Positions 4,046-57,852 of a DNA stretch of 64,000 nucleotides are shown here, piece by piece. The first letter of the stretch is position 1; each line of letters starts with the position of its first letter. The position numbers and the translations under genes are program-made. The notes below the pieces were generated by a model. The model did not search any database and had not been told where the DNA came from. It was given only the letters and a program-made list of their open reading frames with translations. This stretch comes from Pseudomonas nicosulfuronedens (lineage in GTDB: Bacteria; Pseudomonadota; Gammaproteobacteria; Pseudomonadales; Pseudomonadaceae): positions 1 through 64,000 of the forward strand of contig NZ_SWDV01000037.1 of assembly GCF_005877905.1 (NCBI RefSeq), read 5' to 3'.

Positions 4046-4069
4046 TTCGCGAGCAAGCTCGCTCCTACA
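4046..4069 (+). repeat. Solitary REP element
   Basis: A 24-base copy of the Pseudomonas REP sequence with the internal palindrome GCGAGC-AA-GCTCGC. The same sequence occurs as inverted pairs at 32833, 52495, 56364 and 57785. This is the only unpaired copy I found. Confidence 0.9.
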
Positions 4070-32832: not shown

Positions 32833-32902
32833 TTCGCGAGCAAGCTCGCTCCTACAAGAGCGCTCGCTAGGTTGACTCTGTAGGAGCGAGCTTGCTCGCG
32901 AA
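32833..32902. repeat. REP pair (REPIN)
   Basis: Two 24-base REP copies in inverted orientation, 32833-32856 and 32879-32902, separated by 22 bases. The CTACA ends face each other. The pair lies in the gap between the SDR terminator and the tRNA-Val promoter. Confidence 0.92.
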
Positions 32903-48597: not shown

Positions 48598-48640
48598 CAC
48601 ACCCGCCGCGCCCCGTCCCAGGGGCGCAATGTCCTGTCGA

Positions 48641-48676
48641 AAAGGTGTTACCAACTTTTGTTGGTAACACCTTTTT
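48641..48676 (+). terminator. Rho-independent terminator after pepN
   Basis: 15-bp perfect stem AAAGGTGTTACCAAC (48641-48655), loop TTTT, GTTGGTAACACCTTT (48660-48674), with the T run continuing to 48676. Confidence 0.95.
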
Positions 48677-48894: not shown

Positions 48895-48910
48895 TGGCAC
48901 TGGGGTTGCA
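48895..48910 (+). promoter_or_regulatory. Sigma-54 (RpoN) -24/-12 promoter of the DUF1302-DUF1329 operon
   Basis: TGGCAC (48895-48900), TGGGG, TTGCA (48906-48910) matches the RpoN consensus exactly, with GG and GC separated by 10 bases. The start of transcription would be near 48921, leaving a leader of about 160 bases. The 485-base gap between pepN and the DUF1302 gene thus holds the pepN terminator, the inverted repeat at 48768, an AT-richer stretch (48680-48890), this promoter and the leader. I see no gene in it. Confidence 0.82.
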
Positions 48911-49082
48911 CCGACGGACCCCGCTTAGCCTTTGCCCGTCCATTGGGACGGGAGGCGTGTCGAGCACCTTGGGGGAGTTTCCTTCAGATCGACGACAACA
49001 AGGCCGTGGAATAACGGCTGACAAGGCGTACCGCGCACTGGCGGCGCCGCTAAAGAATGATCAGTCCATGGAGTGAGTCCTA

Positions 49083-51050
49083 ATGGAAATCCCAGTTCGC
49101 AAGCCCGTCTTGCGTTATGCGCCTGCTCGTGCCGGTTTCGCCCTGGCCGGCATCCTGCCTCTGCTGATGTCTGCCCAGGCAACGGCGGTCGAGTTCAGCT
49201 TCCTCGACAACGAAGTCACCGGCTCGCTGGACAGCACCGTGTCCTACGGCGCCCTTTGGCGCGTGCAGGGCCAGGACAAGACCAACAACGACATCAACGG
49301 CAACGACGGCAACCGTAACTTCGACACTGGCCTGGTTTCCGAGGTGTACAAGATCACTTCCGACCTGGAAGCGACCTACAAGAACTACGGTCTGTTCGTC
49401 CGTGGCTCGGCTTTCTATGACACCCAGATCATGGACAAGCGCAACGACTACTACGACAACAACCATCCGGCGCAGCCGAGCCAGACCTACCCCAACAGCG
49501 ATCGCTTCACCAGCGAGACCCGCGATGCCGCCGGCAATCGCGCCGAGATCCTCGATGCCTACGTCTACGGCAACTGGGACGTGGCCGACCACCCGCTGAC
49601 CGCACGCCTGGGCCGCCAGGTGTTCAACTGGGGGGAGGGCATCTTCTACCGTGGTGGCGTGAACACCACCAACCCGGTGGACGCCGCCAAGTTCCGCCTG
49701 CCGGGCTCCGAGCTGAAGGAAGTGTTGATGCCGGTGGAAGCTGCAAGCTTCAACATCGGTTTGACCGACAACCTGTCGATGGACGCCTTCTACCAGTGGA
49801 ACTGGAAAGAGACCCGCATCGACCCGGTCGGCACCTTCTTCTCCGAGACCGATCTGTTCGCCGATGGTGGCAACACCGCCTACACCACCGTGGGCGCGCT
49901 CTCCAACCCGCTGTTCCAGAGCCTCTACCCGCAGCTGTCCGCAGCCCATGTGGGCGGCCTGCAGGGTACCCAGTACCTGGACTCCAACGGTGTGTTCAAG
50001 GTTGCCAACGTCGGCAAGGACATCAACGCCAAGAACGATGGTCAGTTCGGCGTGGCCTTCCACTACGTGGCCGAAGAACTGAACTCCACCGAGTTCGGCT
50101 TCTACTTCGTGAACTACCACTCGAAGGAACCGACCATCTACGCCGACCTGAACAGCGACTACGCTGGCGTGGATCTCGATCAGCTCGCCGGCGTCGGCGG
50201 CTTCACCTCCTACGACCAGCTGGTCTCGGCGGCCGGCAGCGGCAACGCCCTGGCCGGCCAGGTGCTGAGCCTGGTCAATGGTGCGACCTCCGTGGACGTG
50301 GCCAACCAGGTCAACGCCCGCCGCGAGTACGTCGAGAACATCCGCATGTACGGCTTCAGCTTCAACACCACCGTGGGCGACGCCTCGGTGTTCGGTGAGC
50401 TGGCCTACCGCCCGAACCTGCCGATCGGCATCGCCACCACCAACGACCTGCTCGGCGATCTGCTGGTGCAGGCCCCGGCGCTGGCCAGCGGCAAGACCGT
50501 GAACATCGGTGGCGGTGACGTCTCGATTCGCGACCAGATCCACAACTACGAGCGCGTCGAGGCCTTCAACACCTCGTTGGGCACCATCTACAACTTCGGC
50601 CCGTCGCTGTCCTTCGACTCGCTGATGGGCGTGGCGGAACTGGCCTCCGAACACCTGCGCGGCAGCGACCTGCAGTACACCGCGTATGACGGCAGTACCC
50701 GCTACTACTCCGGCCGTGGCAACGGCGCCTACATCTCCGGCTACGACCGCGACGATCAGGTGAACAAGAACGCCTACGGCTACACCCTGCTGCTGTCGGG
50801 CACCTGGAACGACGTCTTCGCCGGCGTGAACATCTCGCCCTACGCCGTCTACAAGGACGACTTCGAAGGCAACTCCTACCAGACCGGCAACTTCATCGAA
50901 GGCCGCAAGGCCTACACTCTCGGCGTCAAGGCTACCTACCTGAACGCCCTGGAGGCCGAGCTGCAGTACACCGAGTTCTACGGCGCCGGGCAGAACAACG
51001 CCAGCCGCGACCGCGACAACGTCGGCTTCAACGTCAAGTACTCCTTCTGA
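49083..51050 (+). CDS. DUF1302 outer-membrane beta-barrel-like protein
   Basis: 655 residues. The signal peptide runs to about residue 35 (LLMSAQATA). The mature part is rich in alternating aromatic and polar strands with Asn/Asp/Tyr loops, and ends in VKYSF with C-terminal Phe, the signature of an outer-membrane barrel. RLGRQVFNWGEGIFYRGG (about 178-195) is characteristic of DUF1302. The family accompanies DUF1329 proteins in many proteobacteria that grow on hydrophobic compounds. A channel or receptor for such a compound is inference. It is first in a sigma-54 operon, followed by the DUF1329 gene after 62 bases. Confidence 0.88.
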   Translation: MEIPVRKPVLRYAPARAGFALAGILPLLMSAQATAVEFSFLDNEVTGSLDSTVSYGALWRVQGQDKTNNDINGNDGNRNFDTGLVSEVYKITSDLEATYKNYGLFVRGSAFYDTQIMDKRNDYYDNNHPAQPSQTYPNSDRFTSETRDAAGNRAEILDAYVYGNWDVADHPLTARLGRQVFNWGEGIFYRGGVNTTNPVDAAKFRLPGSELKEVLMPVEAASFNIGLTDNLSMDAFYQWNWKETRIDPVGTFFSETDLFADGGNTAYTTVGALSNPLFQSLYPQLSAAHVGGLQGTQYLDSNGVFKVANVGKDINAKNDGQFGVAFHYVAEELNSTEFGFYFVNYHSKEPTIYADLNSDYAGVDLDQLAGVGGFTSYDQLVSAAGSGNALAGQVLSLVNGATSVDVANQVNARREYVENIRMYGFSFNTTVGDASVFGELAYRPNLPIGIATTNDLLGDLLVQAPALASGKTVNIGGGDVSIRDQIHNYERVEAFNTSLGTIYNFGPSLSFDSLMGVAELASEHLRGSDLQYTAYDGSTRYYSGRGNGAYISGYDRDDQVNKNAYGYTLLLSGTWNDVFAGVNISPYAVYKDDFEGNSYQTGNFIEGRKAYTLGVKATYLNALEAELQYTEFYGAGQNNASRDRDNVGFNVKYSF

Positions 51051-51112
51051 TAACGACAAGTGTGCGGCGGGCTTCAGAAGTGCCTGCCGCACGCCCCTCA
51101 CGGAGAAGCAAC

Positions 51113-52480
51113 ATGCGCAACATGCGTACCCTGGTCGGCGCTGCCGTGGCTCTGGCCCTGTCCGCCGGCAGCGCCCTGGCGGCGGTTTCCCCGCAGGATG
51201 CGGCCAAGCTGCAGTCGAGCCTGACCCCGCTGGGCGCGGAAAAGGCCGGCAACGCCGCCGGCACCATCCCGGCCTGGACCGGTGGCATCACCCAGGCACC
51301 GGCCGGCTACAAGCCGGGCCAGCACCACATCGACCCGTTCGCCGCCGACAAGCCGCTGTACACCATTACCAAGGCGAACCTGGACCAGTACAAGGCCAAC
51401 CTGACCCCGGGCACCCTGGCGCTGTTCGCCACCTACCCGGACACCTTCCAGATGCCGGTGTACCCGAGCCGCCGCAGTGGTTCGGCACCGCAGTGGGTGT
51501 ATGACAACACCCTGAAGAACGCCACCAGCGCCAAGCTGGCCGAGGGCGGCAACGGTTTCGTCGATGCCTTTGGCGGCATTCCGTTCCCGATCCCGCAGAA
51601 CGGCGTGGAAGCGGTGTGGAACCACATCGCCCGCTACCGCGGCACCTACATCGTGCGTCGCGCGTCCGAAGTGGCCGTGCAGCGCAATGGTGACTACTCG
51701 CTGGTGACCTCGCAGCAGGAGGCGCTGTTCAAGTACTACATCCAGGGCAAGAGCTTCTCGGACCTGAACAACCTGCTGTTCTACTACCTGTCGTTCACCA
51801 AGAGCCCGGCTCGCCTGGCCGGTGGTGCCGCACTGGTCCACGAGACCCTCGATCAGGTGAAGGAGCCGCGTCAGGCCTGGGGCTACAACGCCGGTCAGCG
51901 CCGTGTGCGCCGCGCGCCGAACCTGGCCTACGACACCCCGATCGCTGCCGCCGACGGCCTGCGTACCGCCGACGACACCGACATGTTCAACGGCTCGCCG
52001 GACCGCTACGACTGGAAGCTGATCGGCAAGAAGGAAATGTACATCCCGTACAACAACTACAAGGTCTCCAGCCCTGAGGTTAAGTACAAGGATCTGCTGA
52101 CCCCGAACCACCTGAACCCGAAATACACCCGCTACGAACTGCACCGCGTGTGGGTCGTCGAAGGCACCCTGAAGCCGGGCTCGCGCCACATCTATTCCAA
52201 GCGCGTGCTGTTCCTGGACGAGGACAGCTGGGGCGCCGCCGAAGTCGACCAGTACGACGGTCGCGGCGAGCTGTGGCGTGTATCGCTGGCCTACCTGAAG
52301 AACTACTACGAGCTGCCCACCACCTGGACCGCTCTGGATACCTTCCACGACCTGCAGGCCCGTCGTTACCACGTACAGAACCTGGACAACGAAGAGCCGA
52401 GCACCATCGACTTCGGCCAGGCTGTACCGGACGACTCCTACTTCAGCCCGTCCGCACTGCGTCGCCGCGGCACCCGCTGA
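51113..52480 (+). CDS. DUF1329 periplasmic protein
   Basis: 455 residues. It has a signal peptide cut after SALA (about residue 23). The mature start VSPQDAAKLQSSLTPLGAEK and AGTIPAWTGGI are typical DUF1329 features. The family is thought to have a lipoprotein-carrier-like (LolA/LolB-type) beta fold able to hold a lipid-like ligand; I recall this but cannot check it here. The start at 51113 has CGGAGAAG upstream, and the frame extends further without support. It is second in the operon with DUF1302, and a REP pair and terminator follow. Confidence 0.88.
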   Translation: MRNMRTLVGAAVALALSAGSALAAVSPQDAAKLQSSLTPLGAEKAGNAAGTIPAWTGGITQAPAGYKPGQHHIDPFAADKPLYTITKANLDQYKANLTPGTLALFATYPDTFQMPVYPSRRSGSAPQWVYDNTLKNATSAKLAEGGNGFVDAFGGIPFPIPQNGVEAVWNHIARYRGTYIVRRASEVAVQRNGDYSLVTSQQEALFKYYIQGKSFSDLNNLLFYYLSFTKSPARLAGGAALVHETLDQVKEPRQAWGYNAGQRRVRRAPNLAYDTPIAAADGLRTADDTDMFNGSPDRYDWKLIGKKEMYIPYNNYKVSSPEVKYKDLLTPNHLNPKYTRYELHRVWVVEGTLKPGSRHIYSKRVLFLDEDSWGAAEVDQYDGRGELWRVSLAYLKNYYELPTTWTALDTFHDLQARRYHVQNLDNEEPSTIDFGQAVPDDSYFSPSALRRRGTR

Positions 52481-52494
52481 GTTCGCCGTAGGCG

Positions 52495-52574
52495 TGTAGG
52501 AGCGAGCTTGCTCGCGAACCCGCCCAGCACCGTTGCTGCCGGCTGACACATTTGCGAGCAAGCTCGCTCCTACG
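52495..52574. repeat. REP pair (REPIN)
   Basis: REP copies 52495-52518 and 52551-52574 are inverted with the GCGAA ends facing inward, the opposite arrangement to the pair at 32833. It sits directly after the DUF1329 gene and before its terminator. Confidence 0.92.
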
Positions 52575-52603
52575 AAAAGAGCCCCGCCTCGGCGGGGCTT
52601 TTC
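52575..52603 (+). terminator. Rho-independent terminator between DUF1329 and YCF48 genes
   Basis: AGCCCCGC (52580-52587), loop CTCG, GCGGGGCT (52592-52599) with A-rich and T-rich flanks. It splits the four-gene cluster into two transcription units. The 349-base gap here also holds the REP pair and the promoter candidate at 52754; no gene is seen. Confidence 0.88.
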
Positions 52604-52753
52604 ATTGCCCGGGCAAAACCTCGAGGGAGCAAAAGTGTTACCGCACAACCCGCTGGAAGCCCGCGGCCGCGCGCCTTTCGGCTGAGATGGCAAAACGCAG
52701 TCATCCTTTCGAGTGAGGCGGCTGGGGCTTAACAAAAGATAACGTGCCGTCAA

Positions 52754-52783
52754 TTGTCAGCCCCGGAAAAGGCTGGCTATATA
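52754..52783 (+). promoter_or_regulatory. Sigma-70-like promoter candidate for the YCF48-MMPL unit
   Basis: TTGTCA (52754-52759), 18 bases, TATATA (52778-52783), about 40 bases before the ribosome site of the YCF48 gene. Confidence 0.5.
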
Positions 52784-52829
52784 GCTCCAAACTACATACC
52801 GCCTGCATAAGAAAAAGAGGTAAAGGCAT

Positions 52830-53912
52830 ATGCGTGAGCCCCTGTGGCGCACTTCGAGCGAGCAGCCCATATCGGGAGTGCGAAGCTCCTTCCCGATGTC
52901 GCGCAAGTCGGTTTCCCTGCTCGGCGCGTTTTCCTTCCTGATGATGTCCCTGGCTCCGCTGCATGCCGTTGCCGCAACGGACGCCGCCAGCGATGCCAAC
53001 TCGATCATTTCCGCCAAGGCTTCCAGCAGCCTGCTGCTGAGCATCGCCCATGCCGGCAAGCGCCTGGTCGCGGTGGGGGATCACGGGCACATCCTCTATT
53101 CCGACGACGCAGGCAAGAGCTGGACCCAGGCCACCGTGCCGACCCGCCAGCTGCTGACTTCGGTGTTCTTCGTCAACGACAAGAAAGGCTGGGCCGTCGG
53201 CCATGATGCCCAGGTCCTGGCCACCACCGATGGCGGCACTACCTGGGTGCGCCAGTTCGAGGACCTCAAGCGCGAAGCGCCGCTGCTGGACATCTGGTTC
53301 CAGGACGAGAACCACGGCGTGGCCGTGGGCGCTTATGGCGCGCTGCTGGAAACCACCGACGGCGGCAAGAGCTGGGAAGACGTCAGCGACCGCCTGGACA
53401 ACGAAGACCAGTTCCACCTCAACGCCATCACGGCGGTGAAGGATTCCGGCCTGTTCGTGGTCGGCGAAGCAGGCAGCATGTTCCGCTCCAAGGACTGGGG
53501 CGAGACCTGGGAAAAACTCCAGGGCCCTTATGAAGGCTCGCTGTTCGGCGCCACCGGTACCACCCACGCCGGCACCGTCCTGGCCTATGGCCTGCGCGGC
53601 CACCTGTTCCGCTCCACCGATTTCGGCGACACCTGGCAGCAGGTCAGCCTGCCCACCGCCAATGGCGGCGAGCTGGAGTTCGGCCTCTCTGAAGGCAGCC
53701 TGCTGGATGACGGCACCATCGTCGTCGTCGGCCATGGCGGCAGCGTGCTGGAGAGCAAGGACGACGGCGTGAGCTTCAGTGTCGTCAACCGTCCGGACCG
53801 CCTGTCCCTTGCGGGCGTGAGCGCGGCCGGCAATGGCAACCTGGTCCTGGTCGGCCAGGGCGGTATCCACCTGGCTACGGCGACCGGCGCCGAGCTGACA
53901 GAACAACAATAA
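52830..53912 (+). CDS. Exported YCF48/BNR-type beta-propeller protein
   Basis: 360 residues from ATG 52830, which has AGAGGTAAAG at a good distance. ATG 52896 (residue 23) would give a cleaner signal peptide, MSRKSVSLLGAFSFLMMS and on to HAVA, but lacks a ribosome site. The mature protein has repeated Asp-box-like blades: YSDDAGKSW, ATTDGGTTW, ETTDGGKSW, RSKDWGETW, RSTDFGDTW. YCF48-family propellers act as assembly factors (photosystem II HCF136) and recur next to MMPL transporters in proteobacteria. It lies 14 bases before the transporter gene, and is probably its periplasmic partner. Confidence 0.88.
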   Translation: MREPLWRTSSEQPISGVRSSFPMSRKSVSLLGAFSFLMMSLAPLHAVAATDAASDANSIISAKASSSLLLSIAHAGKRLVAVGDHGHILYSDDAGKSWTQATVPTRQLLTSVFFVNDKKGWAVGHDAQVLATTDGGTTWVRQFEDLKREAPLLDIWFQDENHGVAVGAYGALLETTDGGKSWEDVSDRLDNEDQFHLNAITAVKDSGLFVVGEAGSMFRSKDWGETWEKLQGPYEGSLFGATGTTHAGTVLAYGLRGHLFRSTDFGDTWQQVSLPTANGGELEFGLSEGSLLDDGTIVVVGHGGSVLESKDDGVSFSVVNRPDRLSLAGVSAAGNGNLVLVGQGGIHLATATGAELTEQQ

Positions 53913-53926
53913 GCCGGGGAGCCGCA

Positions 53927-56308
53927 ATGAACGCTCTGAACAAGCATCAACAGGACAAGGCGACTTTCCTGGAACGCATCATCTTCACCCACCGGCCGTT
54001 CGTGATCATCGCGTGCCTGCTGGTGACCATTTTCCTCGGCTGGTCGGCTACGCAGGTGCGCCCATCCACCAGCTTCGAGAAGATGATCCCGCTGCAGCAC
54101 CCGTTCATCCAGAACATGCTGGAGCACCGCAACGACCTGGCCAACCTCGGCAACACCGTGCGCATCTCGGTGGAAGCGGTGAATGGCGACATCTTCACCA
54201 AGGAGTACATGGAGACGCTGCGGCAGATCCATGACGAGGTGTTCTACATCCCCGGCGTCGACCGCTCCGGCATGAAGTCGCTGTGGAGCCCGAGCGTGCG
54301 CTGGACCGAGGTGACCGAGGAAGGCTTCGCCGGAGGCGAAGTGATCCCGCAGACCTACGACGGTTCCGCCAAGGCCCTGGACCTGCTGCGCAACAACGTG
54401 CTCAAGTCCGGCCAGATCGGCCGCCTGGTGGCCAACAACTTCAAGTCGAGCATCGTCGACGTGCCGCTGCTGGAGGTCTACCCGGACCCGAAGGACCAGG
54501 GCAAGCTGATGAAGCTGGACTACCGCCAGTTCTCCCATGAGCTGGAAGAGAAGATCCGCGACAAGTACCAGCTGCAGAACCCCAACGTGAAGATCCACAT
54601 CACCGGCTTCGCCAAGAAGGTCGGTGACCTGATCGACGGCCTGCTGATGGTGGTCGGCTTCTTCGGCATCTGCTTCGTCATCACCCTGGTGCTGCTGCTG
54701 TGGTTCACCAAGTGCGTGCGCTCCACCATCGCCGTGCTGTCCACCACCCTGGTGGCGGTGATCTGGCAGCTGGGCCTGCTGCACATCATCGGCTTTGGGC
54801 TGGACCCGTACTCGATGCTGGTGCCGTTCCTCATCTTCGCCATCGGTATTTCCCACGGCGTGCAGAAGATCAACGGTATCGCCCTGCAGTCCAGTGACGC
54901 GGAGACCCCGCTGCTGGCCGCCCGCCGCACCTTCCGCCAGCTGTTCCTGCCGGGCATGATCGCGATCCTCGCGGACGCCGTCGGCTTCATCACCCTGCTG
55001 GTGATCGACATCGGCGTGATCCGCGAACTGGCCATCGGCGCCTCCATCGGCGTGGCGGTGATCGTGTTCACCAACCTGATCCTGCTGCCGGTTGCGATCT
55101 CCTACATCGGCATCAGCAAGAAGGCAGTGCAGCGCAGCAAGGAAGACGCCGTGCGCGACCATCCCTTCTGGCGTGCCCTGTCCAACTTCGCCAGCCCGTC
55201 CGTGGCGCCGATCTCCGTGGTCATCGCCCTGGCGATGTTCGCCGGCGGCCTGTGGCAGGGCCATCACCTGAAGATCGGCGACCTCGACCAGGGCGCGCCG
55301 GAACTGCGTCCGGACTCGCGCTACAACCTGGACAACGACTTCATCATCCGCAACTACTCGACCAGCTCCGACGTGCTGGTGGTGATGGTGGCGTCCGAAG
55401 CCGAAGGCTGCTCCACCCACAAGACCCTGTCCGCCATCGACGAGCTGGCCTGGCGCCTGGAGAACACCCAGGGCGTGCAGTCGGCCATCTCCCTGGTCAC
55501 TGTCTCCAAGCAGATGATCAAGGGCATGAACGAAGGCAACCTGAAGTGGGAGTCGCTGTCGCGCAACCAGGACGTGCTGAACAACTCCATCAGCCGCGCC
55601 GAAGGCCTGTTCAACAGCAACTGCTCGCTGGCGCCCCTGCTGGTGTTCCTCAACGACCACAAGGCCGAGACCCTCGACCGCGCGGTGGCGGTCGTGCAGG
55701 ACTTCGCCAAGGCCAACGAGAAGGATGACCTGAAGTTCAAGCTCGCCGCTGGTAACGCCGGTATCGAGGCCGCCACCAACGACGTGATCAAGCACTCGGA
55801 ACTGACCATCCTGATCCTGGTGTACATCTGCGTCGCGCTGATGTGCCTGATCACCTTCCGCTCCTTCGCCGCGACCCTGTGCATCGTGCTGCCGCTGATC
55901 CTCACCTCGGTGCTGGGCAACGCGCTGATGGCCACCCTGGGTATCGGCGTGAAAGTGGCGACCCTGCCGGTGATCGCACTGGGCGTGGGGATCGGCGTGG
56001 ACTACGGCATCTACATCTACACCCGCCTGGAGTCCTTCCTGCGCCAGGGCCTGTCCCTGCAGGAGGCCTACTACGAGACCCTGAAGTCCACGGGTAAAGC
56101 GGTGCTGTTCACCGGCCTGTGCCTGGCCATCGGCGTCGCCACCTGGATCTTCTCGGCGATCAAGTTCCAGGCCGACATGGGCCTGATGCTGACCTTCATG
56201 CTCCTCTGGAACATGTTCGGTGCGCTGTGGCTGCTGCCGGCACTGGCGCGCTTCCTGATCAATCCGGAGAAGGTGCGTCAGAAGAAGGCTTCGATCCTGG
56301 TTCACTGA
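53927..56308 (+). CDS. MMPL/RND-family inner-membrane transporter
   Basis: 793 residues with twelve predicted helices: one near residues 24-44, five at about 225-405, one at about 425-447, and five at about 625-770. These form two similar halves, each with a periplasmic domain. The second half carries GVGIGVDYGIYIYTRL with the Asp-Tyr pair of proton-driven MMPL/HpnN proteins. The first half has AIGISHGVQKING at the same place, without the Asp. The family moves lipids or hydrophobic molecules. There is no MFP or TolC partner, unlike drug-type RND pumps. GGGGAG precedes the ATG. It forms a unit with the YCF48 gene. Confidence 0.92.
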   Translation: MNALNKHQQDKATFLERIIFTHRPFVIIACLLVTIFLGWSATQVRPSTSFEKMIPLQHPFIQNMLEHRNDLANLGNTVRISVEAVNGDIFTKEYMETLRQIHDEVFYIPGVDRSGMKSLWSPSVRWTEVTEEGFAGGEVIPQTYDGSAKALDLLRNNVLKSGQIGRLVANNFKSSIVDVPLLEVYPDPKDQGKLMKLDYRQFSHELEEKIRDKYQLQNPNVKIHITGFAKKVGDLIDGLLMVVGFFGICFVITLVLLLWFTKCVRSTIAVLSTTLVAVIWQLGLLHIIGFGLDPYSMLVPFLIFAIGISHGVQKINGIALQSSDAETPLLAARRTFRQLFLPGMIAILADAVGFITLLVIDIGVIRELAIGASIGVAVIVFTNLILLPVAISYIGISKKAVQRSKEDAVRDHPFWRALSNFASPSVAPISVVIALAMFAGGLWQGHHLKIGDLDQGAPELRPDSRYNLDNDFIIRNYSTSSDVLVVMVASEAEGCSTHKTLSAIDELAWRLENTQGVQSAISLVTVSKQMIKGMNEGNLKWESLSRNQDVLNNSISRAEGLFNSNCSLAPLLVFLNDHKAETLDRAVAVVQDFAKANEKDDLKFKLAAGNAGIEAATNDVIKHSELTILILVYICVALMCLITFRSFAATLCIVLPLILTSVLGNALMATLGIGVKVATLPVIALGVGIGVDYGIYIYTRLESFLRQGLSLQEAYYETLKSTGKAVLFTGLCLAIGVATWIFSAIKFQADMGLMLTFMLLWNMFGALWLLPALARFLINPEKVRQKKASILVH

Positions 56309-56324
56309 TCGACGCTCAAGCCAT

Positions 56325-56355
56325 AAAAAACGCGGCCCTCGGGCCGCGTTTTTTT
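56325..56355 (+). terminator. Rho-independent terminator after the MMPL gene
   Basis: AAAAAACGCGGCCC, TC, GGGCCGCG followed by seven T (56349-56355). It can also work from the minus strand for the convergent cyclase gene. Confidence 0.95.
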
Positions 56356-56363
56356 ATGCTCTT

Positions 56364-56432
56364 CGTAGGAGCGAGCTTGCTCGCGAACAGCATCGCGCAG
56401 GAGCCTGGTTCGCGAGCAAGCTCGCTCCTACA
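56364..56432. repeat. REP pair (REPIN)
   Basis: REP copies 56364-56387 and 56409-56432 with the GCGAA ends facing inward, 21 bases apart. It lies between the convergent MMPL and cyclase genes. Confidence 0.92.
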
Positions 56433-56452: not shown

Positions 56453-57250
56453 TTAAGGCAGGATCGCAAACACCCGCGCCGGGAAGCCGGTGCCTTCGGC
56501 TATCTTCGGGAAGCTCACCACCGCCAGCGCGCCGGCTTCGGGCACCTTGTCGAGGTTGGCGAGCAGTTCGATCTGGTAGTGGTTGGTGCCCAGGATGTAG
56601 GACTCCAGCGAGTAATCGTCCTTGCTGGTGGCGATGCCCGGATCGGTGTCGGTGGTCTCGTGGCCGGAGGCGGTGATCTTGCGCGTCTCGTAGAGGTACA
56701 CCAGCGCTTCCTTGCTCCAACCCGGATAGTGCGCCACGCCCTTGGCGTCCTGGTTCTGCATCTTCGCCTGGTCCGGCCAGCGCTGCGACCAGTCGGTGCG
56801 CAACGCTGCGAAGGAGCCTTCCGGTACTGCCCCGTGCTTGGCCTCCCAGGCCTTCACATCGACGAGGGTGAGCACGTAGTCCGGGTTCTTCGCCACCTGC
56901 TCGTGGATGTCGAACACCACCAGTGGCAGGAACTGCTCCTTCACCTCCAACTGGTCGACGCTGCGCAGGCCCTTGTGGAAGTGCACCGGCGGGTCGACGT
57001 GGGTACCCCATTGGCCAACGTGGCTGTACAACTCCACCTGGAAACCGTCCTTGTCCACGGTATAGAGCGTCTTGCGACCCATCGGCTCGAAGCCTTTCCA
57101 GTGCGGCGTGTTGCTGTCGAATGAGTGGGTCAGGTCGACCCAGTCATGCTGCTTGAGGCTGGCGTAGGTGTCCCACAGGCCGGGCTGGGCGGCCTGGCTC
57201 GCGGCAGGCAACAAGGCAGCGGCGAAGAGCAGGGCGGGAAGGCGTTGCAT
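56453..57250 (-). CDS. Exported cyclase-family (kynurenine-formamidase-like) hydrolase
   Basis: 265 residues with a signal peptide cut near SQA (about residue 20). The metal-binding motif of the cyclase/KynB fold is complete: WGTHVDPPVHFHKG (81-94) with His84, Asp86 and His90. A later ASGHETTDTDPG holds the second His/Glu. Family members hydrolyse amides, lactones or cyclic diketones. An exported form is unusual next to cytoplasmic KynB. It is divergent from the AhpD-like gene with 112 bases between. Confidence 0.88.
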   Translation of the reverse strand: MQRLPALLFAAALLPAASQAAQPGLWDTYASLKQHDWVDLTHSFDSNTPHWKGFEPMGRKTLYTVDKDGFQVELYSHVGQWGTHVDPPVHFHKGLRSVDQLEVKEQFLPLVVFDIHEQVAKNPDYVLTLVDVKAWEAKHGAVPEGSFAALRTDWSQRWPDQAKMQNQDAKGVAHYPGWSKEALVYLYETRKITASGHETTDTDPGIATSKDDYSLESYILGTNHYQIELLANLDKVPEAGALAVVSFPKIAEGTGFPARVFAILP

Positions 57251-57362
57251 GGGTCTGATTCCTTGACGGGGATGGGAGAAAGCGCCTTATCTTTCTCCAT
57301 CGCCCGTTCCGTCATCCAATTCTGAATTCTGCTTTTCTTATTCCCTTTCGTTAGGAGACCCC

Positions 57363-57779
57363 ATGTCCTTCCAGCTCATCGAGTACGCCGAAGCCAGCCC
57401 TGAAGTCCGTGCCGTCTATGAGGACATCATGGCGACCCGCAAGATCGACTGGGTGAACAACTTCTGGAAGGCTCTGGCCAACCACCCGCAGACCCTGAAG
57501 CGCACCTGGGAAAGCCTCAAGGAAGTCATGGGGCCGGGACAGCTCGACCCGTTGATGAAGGAGCTGATCTACGTCGCCGTCAGCGTCACCAACAACTGCA
57601 ACTACTGCATCGGCTCCCACGGTGCGGCGGCGCGCAAGGCCGGGATGGACGACAGCATGCTCGGCGAGTTGATGGCGGTGGTGGCCATGGCCAACGAGAC
57701 CAACCGACTCGCCATTGGCTACCAGGTGCCGCTGGACGATGTGTTCAAGGGCGCGGCGATGGAGAGCAGCGGCAGCTGA
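57363..57779 (+). CDS. Carboxymuconolactone decarboxylase/AhpD-like protein
   Basis: 138 residues, all helical. The AhpD-type redox site is NCNYCIGSH (78-86) with Cys79, Cys82 and His86, which fits peroxidase or disulfide chemistry better than lactone decarboxylation. GTTAGGAGACCCC gives a good ribosome site for ATG 57363. It is monocistronic and divergent from the exported cyclase gene. A REP pair follows. Confidence 0.88.
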   Translation: MSFQLIEYAEASPEVRAVYEDIMATRKIDWVNNFWKALANHPQTLKRTWESLKEVMGPGQLDPLMKELIYVAVSVTNNCNYCIGSHGAAARKAGMDDSMLGELMAVVAMANETNRLAIGYQVPLDDVFKGAAMESSGS

Positions 57780-57784
57780 GACTG

Positions 57785-57852
57785 TTCGCGAGCAAGCTCG
57801 CTCCTACAAAAACGCACCGGCGCGGCTCTGTAGGAGCGAGCTTGCTCGCGAA
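57785..57852. repeat. REP pair (REPIN)
   Basis: REP copies 57785-57808 and 57829-57852 with CTACA ends facing inward, 20 bases apart, as in the pair at 32833. It separates the AhpD-like gene from the convergent hydrolase gene. Confidence 0.92.

What the first reader, a model, noticed from the sequence alone, without database searches (positions are those of the whole stretch)
48895..56355. Four-protein trans-envelope system: DUF1302, DUF1329, YCF48 propeller and MMPL transporter
Seen: consecutive genes for a predicted outer-membrane barrel (C-terminal Phe), an exported DUF1329 protein, an exported YCF48-type propeller and a 12-helix MMPL/RND transporter without the usual fusion-protein or TolC partners. 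Known: MMPL proteins move lipids or hydrophobic molecules, and DUF1302/DUF1329 pairs occur in bacteria using hydrophobic substrates. Inference: together they form one pathway across both membranes for a hydrophobic ligand. This could be import for catabolism or export to the outer membrane. It is the best candidate in the window for an under-described system.
Basis: partly seen in the sequence, partly recalled or inferred. Interest (0 to 1): 0.75.

Follow-up and report, generated by a model that had tools for sequence, protein, structure and literature searches.

The report
Possible shared pump, many membrane gates
A four-protein set that probably moves oily molecules between the two membranes of a Pseudomonas is real, and its kind was already published, but the genomes suggest that one inner-membrane pump may serve many exchangeable outer-membrane gate-and-carrier pairs, which would be a new way of organising such transport.

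Summary
The four genes are real: DUF1302 barrel (49083-51050), DUF1329 carrier (51113-52480), YCF48 propeller (52830-53912), 12-helix MMPL/RND protein (53927-56308). They look like two units: a repeat, a terminator-like hairpin and a conserved promoter-like block (52729-52783) separate the DUF1302-DUF1329 pair from the YCF48-MMPL "engine". The kind is known: AmeABCD of Castellaniella (2018) has these four families, and betaproteobacterial operons with all four were described in 2019. Strong matches co-occur: of 150 Pseudomonadota genomes the same 19 hold all four; of 309 class genomes all 45 with the MMPL have DUF1329, 3 have DUF1329 without a found MMPL. New here is the copy number. This genome has 16 pairs but 4 engines; another has 9 DUF1329 and 1 engine. 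In 54 of 69 Pseudomonas loci with enough upstream sequence, the engine has no pair beside it. Pair-only modules occur on plasmids, and the window pair's nearest own-genome relative (84% in DUF1329) has no engine. Best reading: one proton-driven engine shared by interchangeable gate/carrier modules that bring hydrophobic substrates in. Sharing and direction are inferred; published AmeABCD data were read as export.

The parts
48640..48676 (+). hairpin with T-run after pepN (terminator-like), separates pepN from the DUF1302 gene
   Evidence: read directly from the sequence; not listed by the consensus scan
49083..51050 (+). DUF1302 outer-membrane beta-barrel candidate (AmeA-type gate)
   Evidence: PF06980 554 bits; C-terminal Phe; 15 further DUF1302 genes in the genome
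51113..52480 (+). DUF1329 exported LolA-like periplasmic carrier candidate (AmeB-type)
   Evidence: PF07044 555 bits and PF17131 LolA_like over cut-off; start at 51113 from orthologues
52496..52573 (.). REP-like inverted repeat in the gap between pair and engine
   Evidence: two exact copies, opposite strands, of a 20-mer found 9 times in the window
52580..52602 (.). terminator-like G+C-rich hairpin with T-run
   Evidence: the scan found 8 sites against 6.5 expected, so the consensus match alone is weak
52729..52783 (+). conserved promoter-like block of the engine: TTAACAAAAGATAACG (52729-52744), then TTGTCA-18-TATATA (52754-52783)
   Evidence: alignment of 20 of 78 available Pseudomonas upstream regions, with and without the pair upstream; coordinates; not listed by the sigma-70 consensus scan
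52830..53912 (+). YCF48/BNR propeller, exported (AmeC-type), engine subunit
   Evidence: PSII_BNR 98 bits; best solved matches are Ycf48 proteins; directly upstream of the MMPL in 80 of 80 named loci
53927..56308 (+). MMPL/RND inner-membrane transporter (AmeD-type), engine subunit; TM4 Ser309-His310, TM10 Asp692-Tyr693
   Evidence: PF03176 110 bits, 12 hydrophobic segments, SH/DY in 46 of 46 distinct strong relatives

Best explanation
The window holds a complete AmeABCD-type trans-envelope system for hydrophobic compounds, made of two separable units. Unit 1, the 'engine', is YCF48 plus MMPL: a proton-driven RND-fold protein with a propeller docked on its periplasmic side, in Pseudomonas usually near pepN and with its own promoter-like region. 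Unit 2, the 'module', is a DUF1302 barrel (gate in the outer membrane) plus a DUF1329 LolA-like carrier (ferry through the periplasm). One engine serves many modules: ligand enters through a DUF1302 gate, is bound by the cognate DUF1329, and is handed over at the YCF48-MMPL complex, which uses the proton gradient to put it into the inner membrane and free the carrier. The layout resembles NPC2 handing sterol to NPC1, with an outer-membrane gate in front (my analogy, recalled). Shown: families, gene order, co-occurrence, copy-number imbalance, conserved block before the engine, TM4/TM10 signature. Inferred: the shared engine, the inward direction, the docking and the handover. My estimates: one functional four-protein system 0.9; engine shared by several modules 0.6; net flow inward for catabolism 0.6.
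For: Co-occurrence: the same 19 of 150 genomes hold strong matches to all four families; in 309 genomes all 45 with the MMPL have DUF1329. Imbalance: own genome 16 DUF1302, 17 DUF1329, 4 MMPL, 4 YCF48; 11 pairs have no engine on the fetched stretch and a twelfth is cut by a contig end. Other genomes show 9:1, 6:1, 11:3 DUF1329 to MMPL; 63 of 93 DUF1329 lie more than 8 kb from, or on another contig than, any MMPL over 900 bits. All 7 of the 19 genomes with a single DUF1329 have it beside their single engine. One locus has two DUF1302, three DUF1329 and one engine in a row (L191). Engine alone: 54 of 69 Pseudomonas loci with enough upstream sequence have YCF48-MMPL but no DUF1329. Mobility: plasmids pUM505 and p2017-45-169_2 carry a pair with no engine annotated within 7 kb, and neither record is among the 40 of 46 MMPL records listed. 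Paralogy: the window pair's nearest own-genome relative, 84% (DUF1329) and 81% (DUF1302), is a pair without engine. Published: in P. putida, PP_0765/PP_0766 (DUF1302/DUF1329) correlate in fitness with PP_2018/PP_2019 for growth on Tween 20, with a strong predicted PP_2018-PP_2019 contact and weak ones of PP_0766 to PP_0765 and PP_2019. Neighbours of engine-less pairs tested against family libraries: two acyl-CoA ligases, an acyltransferase, a lipid-transfer thiolase, MalT/LuxR regulators.
Against: No experiment shows that an unlinked pair needs the engine beyond the published fitness correlation. Two related MAGs (G265, G349; one genus, 270-330 contigs) hold a DUF1302-DUF1329 pair with no engine found, and G069 holds a DUF1302 alone. 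The own genome has four engines, so dedicated pairing is possible. Eight engine-less DUF1329 form one supported group, and the 'beside an engine' label is more clustered than in most shuffles (14-36 of 500 as low for DUF1329; 151-158 of 500 for DUF1302), so an engine-independent subfamily is possible. On plasmids the system is mostly complete: 37 of the 40 listed DUF1329 records are also among the 40 listed MMPL records. Direction: the AmeABCD authors read their data as export (lower monoterpene tolerance, slightly more Nile Red in CCCP-treated mutant cells), and characterised RND/MMPL proteins are mostly exporters (recalled). The LolA-like fold of DUF1329 rests on profile matches only; a PDB sequence search with DUF1329 found nothing convincing, and no model could be made.
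Confidence: 0.5

Rival explanations
1. Dedicated exporter. The four proteins form a tetrapartite RND efflux pump (AmeABCD as published): MMPL takes toxic hydrophobic substrate, DUF1329 and YCF48 act as adaptors, DUF1302 is the exit duct; engine-less pairs do something else.
For: ameABCD deletion lowers monoterpene tolerance and raises Nile Red slightly in CCCP-treated cells; betaproteobacterial operons with these four families were interpreted as coping with toxic aromatics and solvent stress; RND precedent (recalled).
Against: [quoted passage not shown] PP_0765 and PP_0766 are required for metabolism of Tween 20; some engine-less pairs sit with acyl-CoA ligases and thiolases; in the passages read the Nile Red influx difference is reported for de-energised cells.
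Confidence: 0.25
2. Two independent systems that often sit together: DUF1302-DUF1329 alone bring hydrophobic substrates across the outer membrane and periplasm; YCF48-MMPL exports or recycles an envelope lipid.
For: Conserved promoter-like block before the engine; engine without adjacent pair in 54 of 69 loci; engine-less DUF1329 outnumber linked ones (63 to 30); two MAGs with a pair and no engine found.
Against: Near-perfect genome-level co-occurrence of strong matches, shared Tween 20 phenotype and fitness correlation in P. putida, linkage in all 7 genomes with one DUF1329.
Confidence: 0.2
3. DUF1302/DUF1329 are secreted or surface hydrolases (esterases) and not transport parts.
For: The Foldy paper says that PP_0765 and PP_0766 were previously suspected of hydrolase activity.
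Against: DUF1302 ends in Phe in 15 of 15 own-genome paralogues called and in the window gene, as outer-membrane barrels do (recalled); DUF1329 matches LolA_like and no hydrolase family; linkage to an RND protein.
Confidence: 0.05

Closest known systems
AmeABCD of Castellaniella defragrans (PMC6394551; passages and section 11 read)
   Same: AmeA DUF1302, AmeB DUF1329, AmeC COG4447 (YCF48-like), AmeD COG1033 RND of 787 aa; same four families in the same order.
   Different: Published as an exporter, with all members of the AmeD lineage said to lie in four-gene cassettes. Here pair and engine look like two units, the engine mostly stands without a pair in the Pseudomonas loci seen, and pairs outnumber engines. 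Whether the Pseudomonas engine falls in the authors' AmeD lineage was not tested directly.
PP_0765/PP_0766 with PP_2018/PP_2019 of Pseudomonas putida (PMC10866462; passages read)
   Same: DUF1302 and DUF1329 with a periplasmic protein and an efflux transporter, unlinked; Tween 20 phenotype; predicted contacts; proposed as a novel substrate transport system.
   Different: One pair; no survey of copy number and no shared-engine proposal in the passages read. That PP_2018 and PP_2019 are YCF48 and MMPL, and are the pepN-linked engine, is recalled, not tested.
AphR/AphS/AphT-regulated operons in Betaproteobacteria (PMC6449761; passages read)
   Same: COG4447, COG1033, PF07044 and DUF1302 together under regulators of aromatic catabolism.
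   Different: Interpreted as coping with toxic aromatics or solvent stress.
Gene run DBX28_14745-14760 in Pseudomonas aeruginosa from crude oil (PMC7145413; one passage read)
   Same: 'Glycosyl hydrolase', RND transporter, DUF1302 and DUF1329 side by side, among phytanoyl-CoA dioxygenase genes.
   Different: Listed in a table only; different gene order, like own locus L107.
'Nanopod' cluster of ORM2a (PMC13101534; passages read)
   Same: DUF1329, YCF48-related and MMPL proteins in one cluster with a porin-like protein; proposed benzene transport.
   Different: Methanogenic benzene-degrading consortium member (Desulfobacterota); extra genes between; DUF1302 not named.
HpnN, MmpL3/4/5 (solved RND/MMPL proteins)
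   Same: MMPL/RND relationship by sequence.
   Different: MmpL5 has Asp-Tyr in both halves; AmeD-type has Ser-His in TM4 and Asp-Tyr in TM10; no YCF48 partner known to me.
LolA_like + MMPL + short DUF1302-like barrel loci in other Pseudomonadota (L183, L184; partly L185, L192)
   Same: Same three functional layers in one locus.
   Different: No YCF48 seen; TM4 Asp in 8 of 10 divergent MMPL; the carrier is a 265-276 aa LolA_like protein, and one (L184) has solved relatives 9tp6, 3bk5, 4z48.

Membership tests
AmeABCD-type tetrapartite system | DUF1302, DUF1329, COG4447/YCF48 and HAE3-like RND genes side by side in this order | tested here: met
   order as described in PMC6394551
AmeABCD-type tetrapartite system | one co-transcribed cassette | tested here: inconclusive
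   349 bp gap with REP-like repeat and terminator-like hairpin, conserved block before YCF48 speak against; consensus scans give no support; transcription not measured
AmeABCD-type tetrapartite system | direct sequence relation of the four proteins to AmeA-D | not tested
   Castellaniella sequences were not fetched; relation inferred from family names, order and lengths
AmeABCD-type tetrapartite system | efflux of monoterpenes or dye | not testable with these tools
   needs mutants
HAE3 (NCBIfam TIGR00921) | score above the curated cut-off of 351.9 bits | tested here: not met
   153 bits, partial match; HAE3-like, but outside NCBI's model
MMPL (Pfam PF03176) | score above gathering cut-off, 12 TM segments | tested here: met
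   110 bits against 20.5; 12 hydrophobic segments
HpnN / MmpL3 equivalogs | NCBIfam cut-offs | tested here: not met
   73.7 of 751.85 bits and 19.2 of 1400 bits
LolA superfamily (for DUF1329) | profile match over cut-off | tested here: met
   PF17131 32 bits against 30, a narrow pass; reciprocal: three of three LolA_like proteins tested match PF07044 at 37-57 bits, cut-off 23.1
LolA superfamily (for DUF1329) | LolA fold with hydrophobic cavity | not testable with these tools
   structure prediction switched off
PSII assembly factor Ycf48 (NCBIfam NF010237) | equivalog cut-off of 326 bits | tested here: not met
   91.4 bits: related by sequence, not the photosystem factor
HAE1 tripartite efflux pump | membrane fusion protein and TolC-type channel beside it | tested here: not met
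   none among the four flanking proteins tested

The most novel reading that the evidence does not exclude
YCF48-MMPL is a general energy-transducing hub for hydrophobic compounds, comparable in logic to TonB-ExbB-ExbD: one inner-membrane engine drives inward flow through a dozen or more interchangeable, partly plasmid-borne DUF1302-DUF1329 gate/carrier modules, each tied to its own catabolic cluster. It would be an RND-superfamily machine working for uptake, with a His-for-Asp exchange in TM4 that marks the lineage.
Probability: 0.4. Interest if true: 0.8.

Novelty: new variant of a known kind. Interest (0 to 1): 0.55.

Why it matters
How Gram-negative bacteria bring very hydrophobic growth substrates (terpenes, long-chain esters, polyaromatics) past two membranes is poorly understood beyond FadL-like channels (recalled). 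If one engine drives many gate/carrier modules, a single deletion would remove growth on many such substrates, module content would help to predict substrate range, and the use of an RND-family machine for uptake becomes directly testable in P. putida KT2440.

Tried and rejected
Considered and rejected. (1) Chance neighbourhood: rejected by co-occurrence (Fisher P 2e-24 and 5e-51, which ignore relatedness; the 19 positives fall in 14 of 94 genera by my count, and strong matches are present in one and absent from another member of genus g12 and of families f2 and f9). (2) One four-gene operon: made unlikely by the conserved block before YCF48, not disproved. (3) HpnN, MmpL3 or Ycf48 identity: far below curated cut-offs. 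(4) C13 copy of MMPL as a pseudogene ('1 TGA'): the profile search gives an 815-aa frame with no stop inside the match.

Led nowhere. Structure predictions of DUF1329 and DUF1302 (tool switched off for all sessions). The P. putida RB-TnSeq paper by DOI (not held). The ICA paper PMC10949508 names a 'Possible Tween-20 catabolism' module but none of the four locus tags in its main text. PMC3958437 holds none of the searched terms, so the Delftia DUF1329 deletion is known to me only through its citation in PMC13101534. PDB sequence search gives no convincing relative of DUF1329 or DUF1302.

Literature limits. That the shared-engine reading is not in print rests on the searches (10 of 10 used) of open-access papers only; 10 papers hold 'DUF1302' and 13 'DUF1329'. 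Of these I read passages of PMC10866462, PMC6394551 (plus its section 11), PMC3110197, PMC13101534, PMC6449761, PMC6890786, PMC7145413 and PMC2817675; the others only as search listings. Subscription papers were not seen.

Thresholds and rows dropped. In the phylum sample the bit-score limits for 'strong' were chosen after seeing the gaps; at the searches' own limits 35 (MMPL, E 1e-20), 49 (DUF1329, E 1e-3), 41 (DUF1302, E 1e-3) and 22 (YCF48, E 1e-5) of 150 genomes match, 7 of 38 rows were left out (four G032 MMPL at 409-431 bits, one G132 at 162, G069 at 113, G284 at 79); two DUF1329 counted as unlinked lie beside such weaker G032 MMPL genes. From the G265, G284 and G349 rows were left out. 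From the rows of 7 genomes already in the phylum sample and the second pieces of split matches were left out; the 58 MMPL and 84 DUF1329 places that remain give 44 MMPL with a DUF1329 within 8 kb and 14 without. Searches scored at most 3 MMPL and 6 DUF1329 candidates a genome, so copy counts there are lower bounds. The alignment used 20 of 78 upstream regions, chosen by me for spread.

Full report
1. What is there. The window lies in a Pseudomonas near P. nitroreducens (MMPL 99% identical in L009-L013; the genome itself is unnamed). The four genes are present as described: DUF1302 at 49083-51050, DUF1329 at 51113-52480, YCF48 at 52830-53912 and MMPL at 53927-56308. YCF48 and MMPL are 14 bases apart; DUF1302 and DUF1329 are 62 bases apart, counting from the ATG that most orthologues use. 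MMPL has 12 hydrophobic segments, YCF48 six Asp-boxes, DUF1302 a C-terminal Phe. DUF1329 also matches the Pfam LolA_like family narrowly over its cut-off, and three of three LolA_like proteins tested from other loci match DUF1329 in return.

2. Probably two units. pepN ends in a hairpin with a T-run at 48640-48676. The 349-base gap after DUF1329 holds two opposed copies of a 20-base repeat that occurs nine times in the window (0.01 expected) and a terminator-like hairpin. Upstream of YCF48, an alignment of 20 Pseudomonas loci (of 78 available) shows a block TTAACAAAAGATAACG followed, in the window, by TTGTCA, 18 bases and TATATA; others have TAGGAT at the last place. The block is conserved in loci with and without the pair upstream. 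The consensus scan listed no promoter there and found terminator-like sites at about the chance rate, so the case rests on conservation; transcription was not measured. In many more distant genomes the genes are close together.

3. Linkage elsewhere. Among the best 80 of 584 confirmed relatives in the genome collection (all Pseudomonas), YCF48 lies directly upstream of MMPL in 80 of 80, and pepN lies on the fetched stretch in 59 of 80. Of the 69 loci with at least 4.5 kb upstream of YCF48, 15 have DUF1329, 13 of them also DUF1302, and 54 have neither. None of 11 divergent MMPL loci (L139-L149) has it.

4. Co-occurrence. In 150 Pseudomonadota genomes a strong MMPL match (over 200 bits) and a strong DUF1329 match (over 170 bits) occur in the same 19 genomes; the best scores in any other genome are 121 and 55 bits. 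YCF48 at E below 1e-20 occurs in the same 19, with weak hits in three more; DUF1302 over 380 bits occurs in these 19 plus one (G069). These limits were chosen after seeing the gaps; at the searches' own limits 35, 49, 41 and 22 genomes match MMPL, DUF1329, DUF1302 and YCF48, the extra ones mostly with the divergent layout of paragraph 9. In 309 genomes of the class (330 asked for; 7 shared with the first sample) MMPL at E 1e-40 or better occurs in 45 and DUF1329 in 48, and all 45 are among the 48. Six of the 45 carry only 25-29% identical MMPL, and in one (G295) the match is cut. Of the three exceptions, G284 is cut by a contig end inside DUF1329, while G265 and G349 (one genus, 270-330 contigs) have a DUF1302-DUF1329 pair and no engine found even with the profile. 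Fisher tests ignore relatedness; as a weaker guard, strong matches are present in one and absent from another member of genus g12 and of families f2 and f9.

5. Copy numbers. The own genome has 16 DUF1302, 17 DUF1329 plus one cut by a contig end, and four MMPL of this type (599-1762 bits; six others at 25 bits or less), each with a YCF48. All four engines have a DUF1302-DUF1329 pair beside them; of the other 12 pairs, 11 have no engine on the fetched stretch and one (L120) is cut by a contig end. Full counts in the 19 genomes: 93 DUF1329 and 31 MMPL over 900 bits. 27 of 31 MMPL have a DUF1329 within 8 kb, but only 30 of 93 DUF1329 lie that near such an MMPL (two of the other 63 lie beside weaker G032 MMPL genes). 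Ratios reach 9:1 (G054), 6:1 (G082) and 12:2 (G032, which has four weaker MMPL genes besides). In all seven genomes with one DUF1329 it sits beside the single engine. In the class sample, with capped counts, 44 of 58 MMPL have a DUF1329 within 8 kb. One locus (L191) reads DUF1302, DUF1329, DUF1329, DUF1302, DUF1329, YCF48, MMPL, and the own C48 locus has two DUF1329 around one engine. L017 keeps DUF1329-YCF48-MMPL with no room for DUF1302, and L186 also lacks DUF1302 in the cassette, so the gate may be supplied from elsewhere.

6. Modules move and duplicate. In trees of 26 DUF1329 and 24 DUF1302 proteins the label 'beside an engine' needs six changes and fits one origin in none of 200 bootstrap trees (G284 is labelled engine-less although its contig ends there). 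The nearest own relative of the window pair (L115; 84% and 81%) has no engine. Against this, eight engine-less DUF1329 of the own genome form one supported group, and the label is more clustered than in most shuffles for DUF1329 (14-36 of 500 as low) though not for DUF1302 (151-158 of 500). On plasmids, 41 records hold DUF1329 and 46 this MMPL; 37 of the 40 listed DUF1329 records are also among the 40 listed MMPL records. Two Pseudomonas aeruginosa plasmids carry a pair with no engine annotated within 7 kb: pUM505 (AraC, DUF1302, DUF1329, DUF1254) and p2017-45-169_2 (thiolase, fatty acid-CoA ligase, DUF1302, DUF1329, regulator). The latter's ligase, DUF1302, DUF1329 and regulator are 75-87% identical to the own L109 cluster. 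A third record without listed MMPL, an Acidovorax plasmid, has the pair and YCF48. P. aeruginosa PA7 has the engine in its chromosome (L021).

7. Substrate context. Neighbours of 5 of the 12 engine-less pairs were tested against family libraries: two AMP-binding acyl-CoA ligases (L109, L117), an acyltransferase (L109), a lipid-transfer thiolase (L113), MalT/LuxR-type regulators (L108, L109; the MalT match is below its cut-off), and one protein without a match (L111). By eye from sequence starts only: AraC-like regulators, a sulfatase-like and enoyl-CoA hydratase-like proteins. This fits catabolism of hydrophobic acids and esters. Published data: metabolism of Tween 20 needs PP_0765, PP_0766, PP_2018 and PP_2019 in P. 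putida; [quoted passage not shown] an ameABCD deletion lowers monoterpene tolerance and raises Nile Red slightly in CCCP-treated cells.

8. Engine signature. Among 46 distinct AmeD-type proteins (over 800 bits to the own-genome profile) TM4 reads Ser-His and TM10 Asp-Tyr in 46 of 46. Of 10 divergent MMPL proteins eight have Ala-Asp in TM4, one Gly-His and one Thr-Glu. MmpL5 aligns with Asp-Tyr in both halves. His in place of the TM4 Asp, with the TM10 Asp kept, marks the lineage and suggests an asymmetric proton path (inference).

9. Mechanism and comparison. The best reading is given in the explanation section: gate, soluble carrier, shared proton-driven acceptor. By family content and gene order it belongs with AmeABCD; direct comparison with the Castellaniella proteins was not made. 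Those authors state that all members of their AmeD lineage lie in four-gene cassettes; if the Pseudomonas engine is of that lineage, 54 of 69 loci here do not fit. A simpler layout, LolA_like carrier, MMPL and short DUF1302-like barrel without YCF48, occurs in other Pseudomonadota (L183, L184) and supports the gate-carrier-pump logic. The shared-engine idea is my inference; I found it in none of the papers read, within the limits told under Tried and rejected. Direction is unsettled: growth phenotypes favour import, Nile Red and tolerance data favour export.

10. Verdict. Observation confirmed; interpretation partly supported. The system is of a known kind; its organisation as one engine with many modules is a new variant worth a direct test.

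Noticed in passing
window 4049-4068, 32836-32899, 52496-52573, 56365-56431, 57788-57849: Nine exact copies of a 20-base REP-like sequence, eight of them as four inverted pairs, against 0.01 expected by chance.
   Followed up: partly
window 56453-57779: PF04199 cyclase and CMD-family genes follow the cassette; both were found in only 7 of 80 named loci (L009-L014, L017; some loci are cut short), so they are probably not part of the system.
   Followed up: partly
L183, L184, L185, L192: Other Pseudomonadota carry MMPL with a short DUF1302-like barrel and, in L183 and L184, a LolA_like carrier, without YCF48 seen (L192: MMPL, LolA_like and a barrel-sized ORF without Pfam match); possibly a simpler parent layout. 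The L184 carrier has solved relatives (9tp6, 3bk5, 4z48).
   Followed up: partly
L119 (own genome C1:19705-20793): A lone DUF1329 gene with no DUF1302 or engine on the fetched stretch, among what look by eye like housekeeping genes.
   Followed up: no
L017, L186: DUF1329-YCF48-MMPL cassettes without DUF1302; in L017 pepN and DUF1329 leave no room for it.
   Followed up: partly
L197 (plasmid pPAMH19): A complete four-gene cassette lies directly beside a mercury-resistance operon on a Pseudomonas aeruginosa plasmid.
   Followed up: no
L196 (plasmid pBHB of Comamonas sp. 7D-2): An AmeD-type MMPL with the Ser-His signature and no annotated DUF1302, DUF1329 or YCF48 nearby, among transposases (the plasmid gene table is incomplete).
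   Followed up: no
window 52830-52895: YCF48 starts with an ATG followed by GTGAGC in nearly all of 20 aligned loci, with an N-terminal extension before the signal-peptide core.
   Followed up: no
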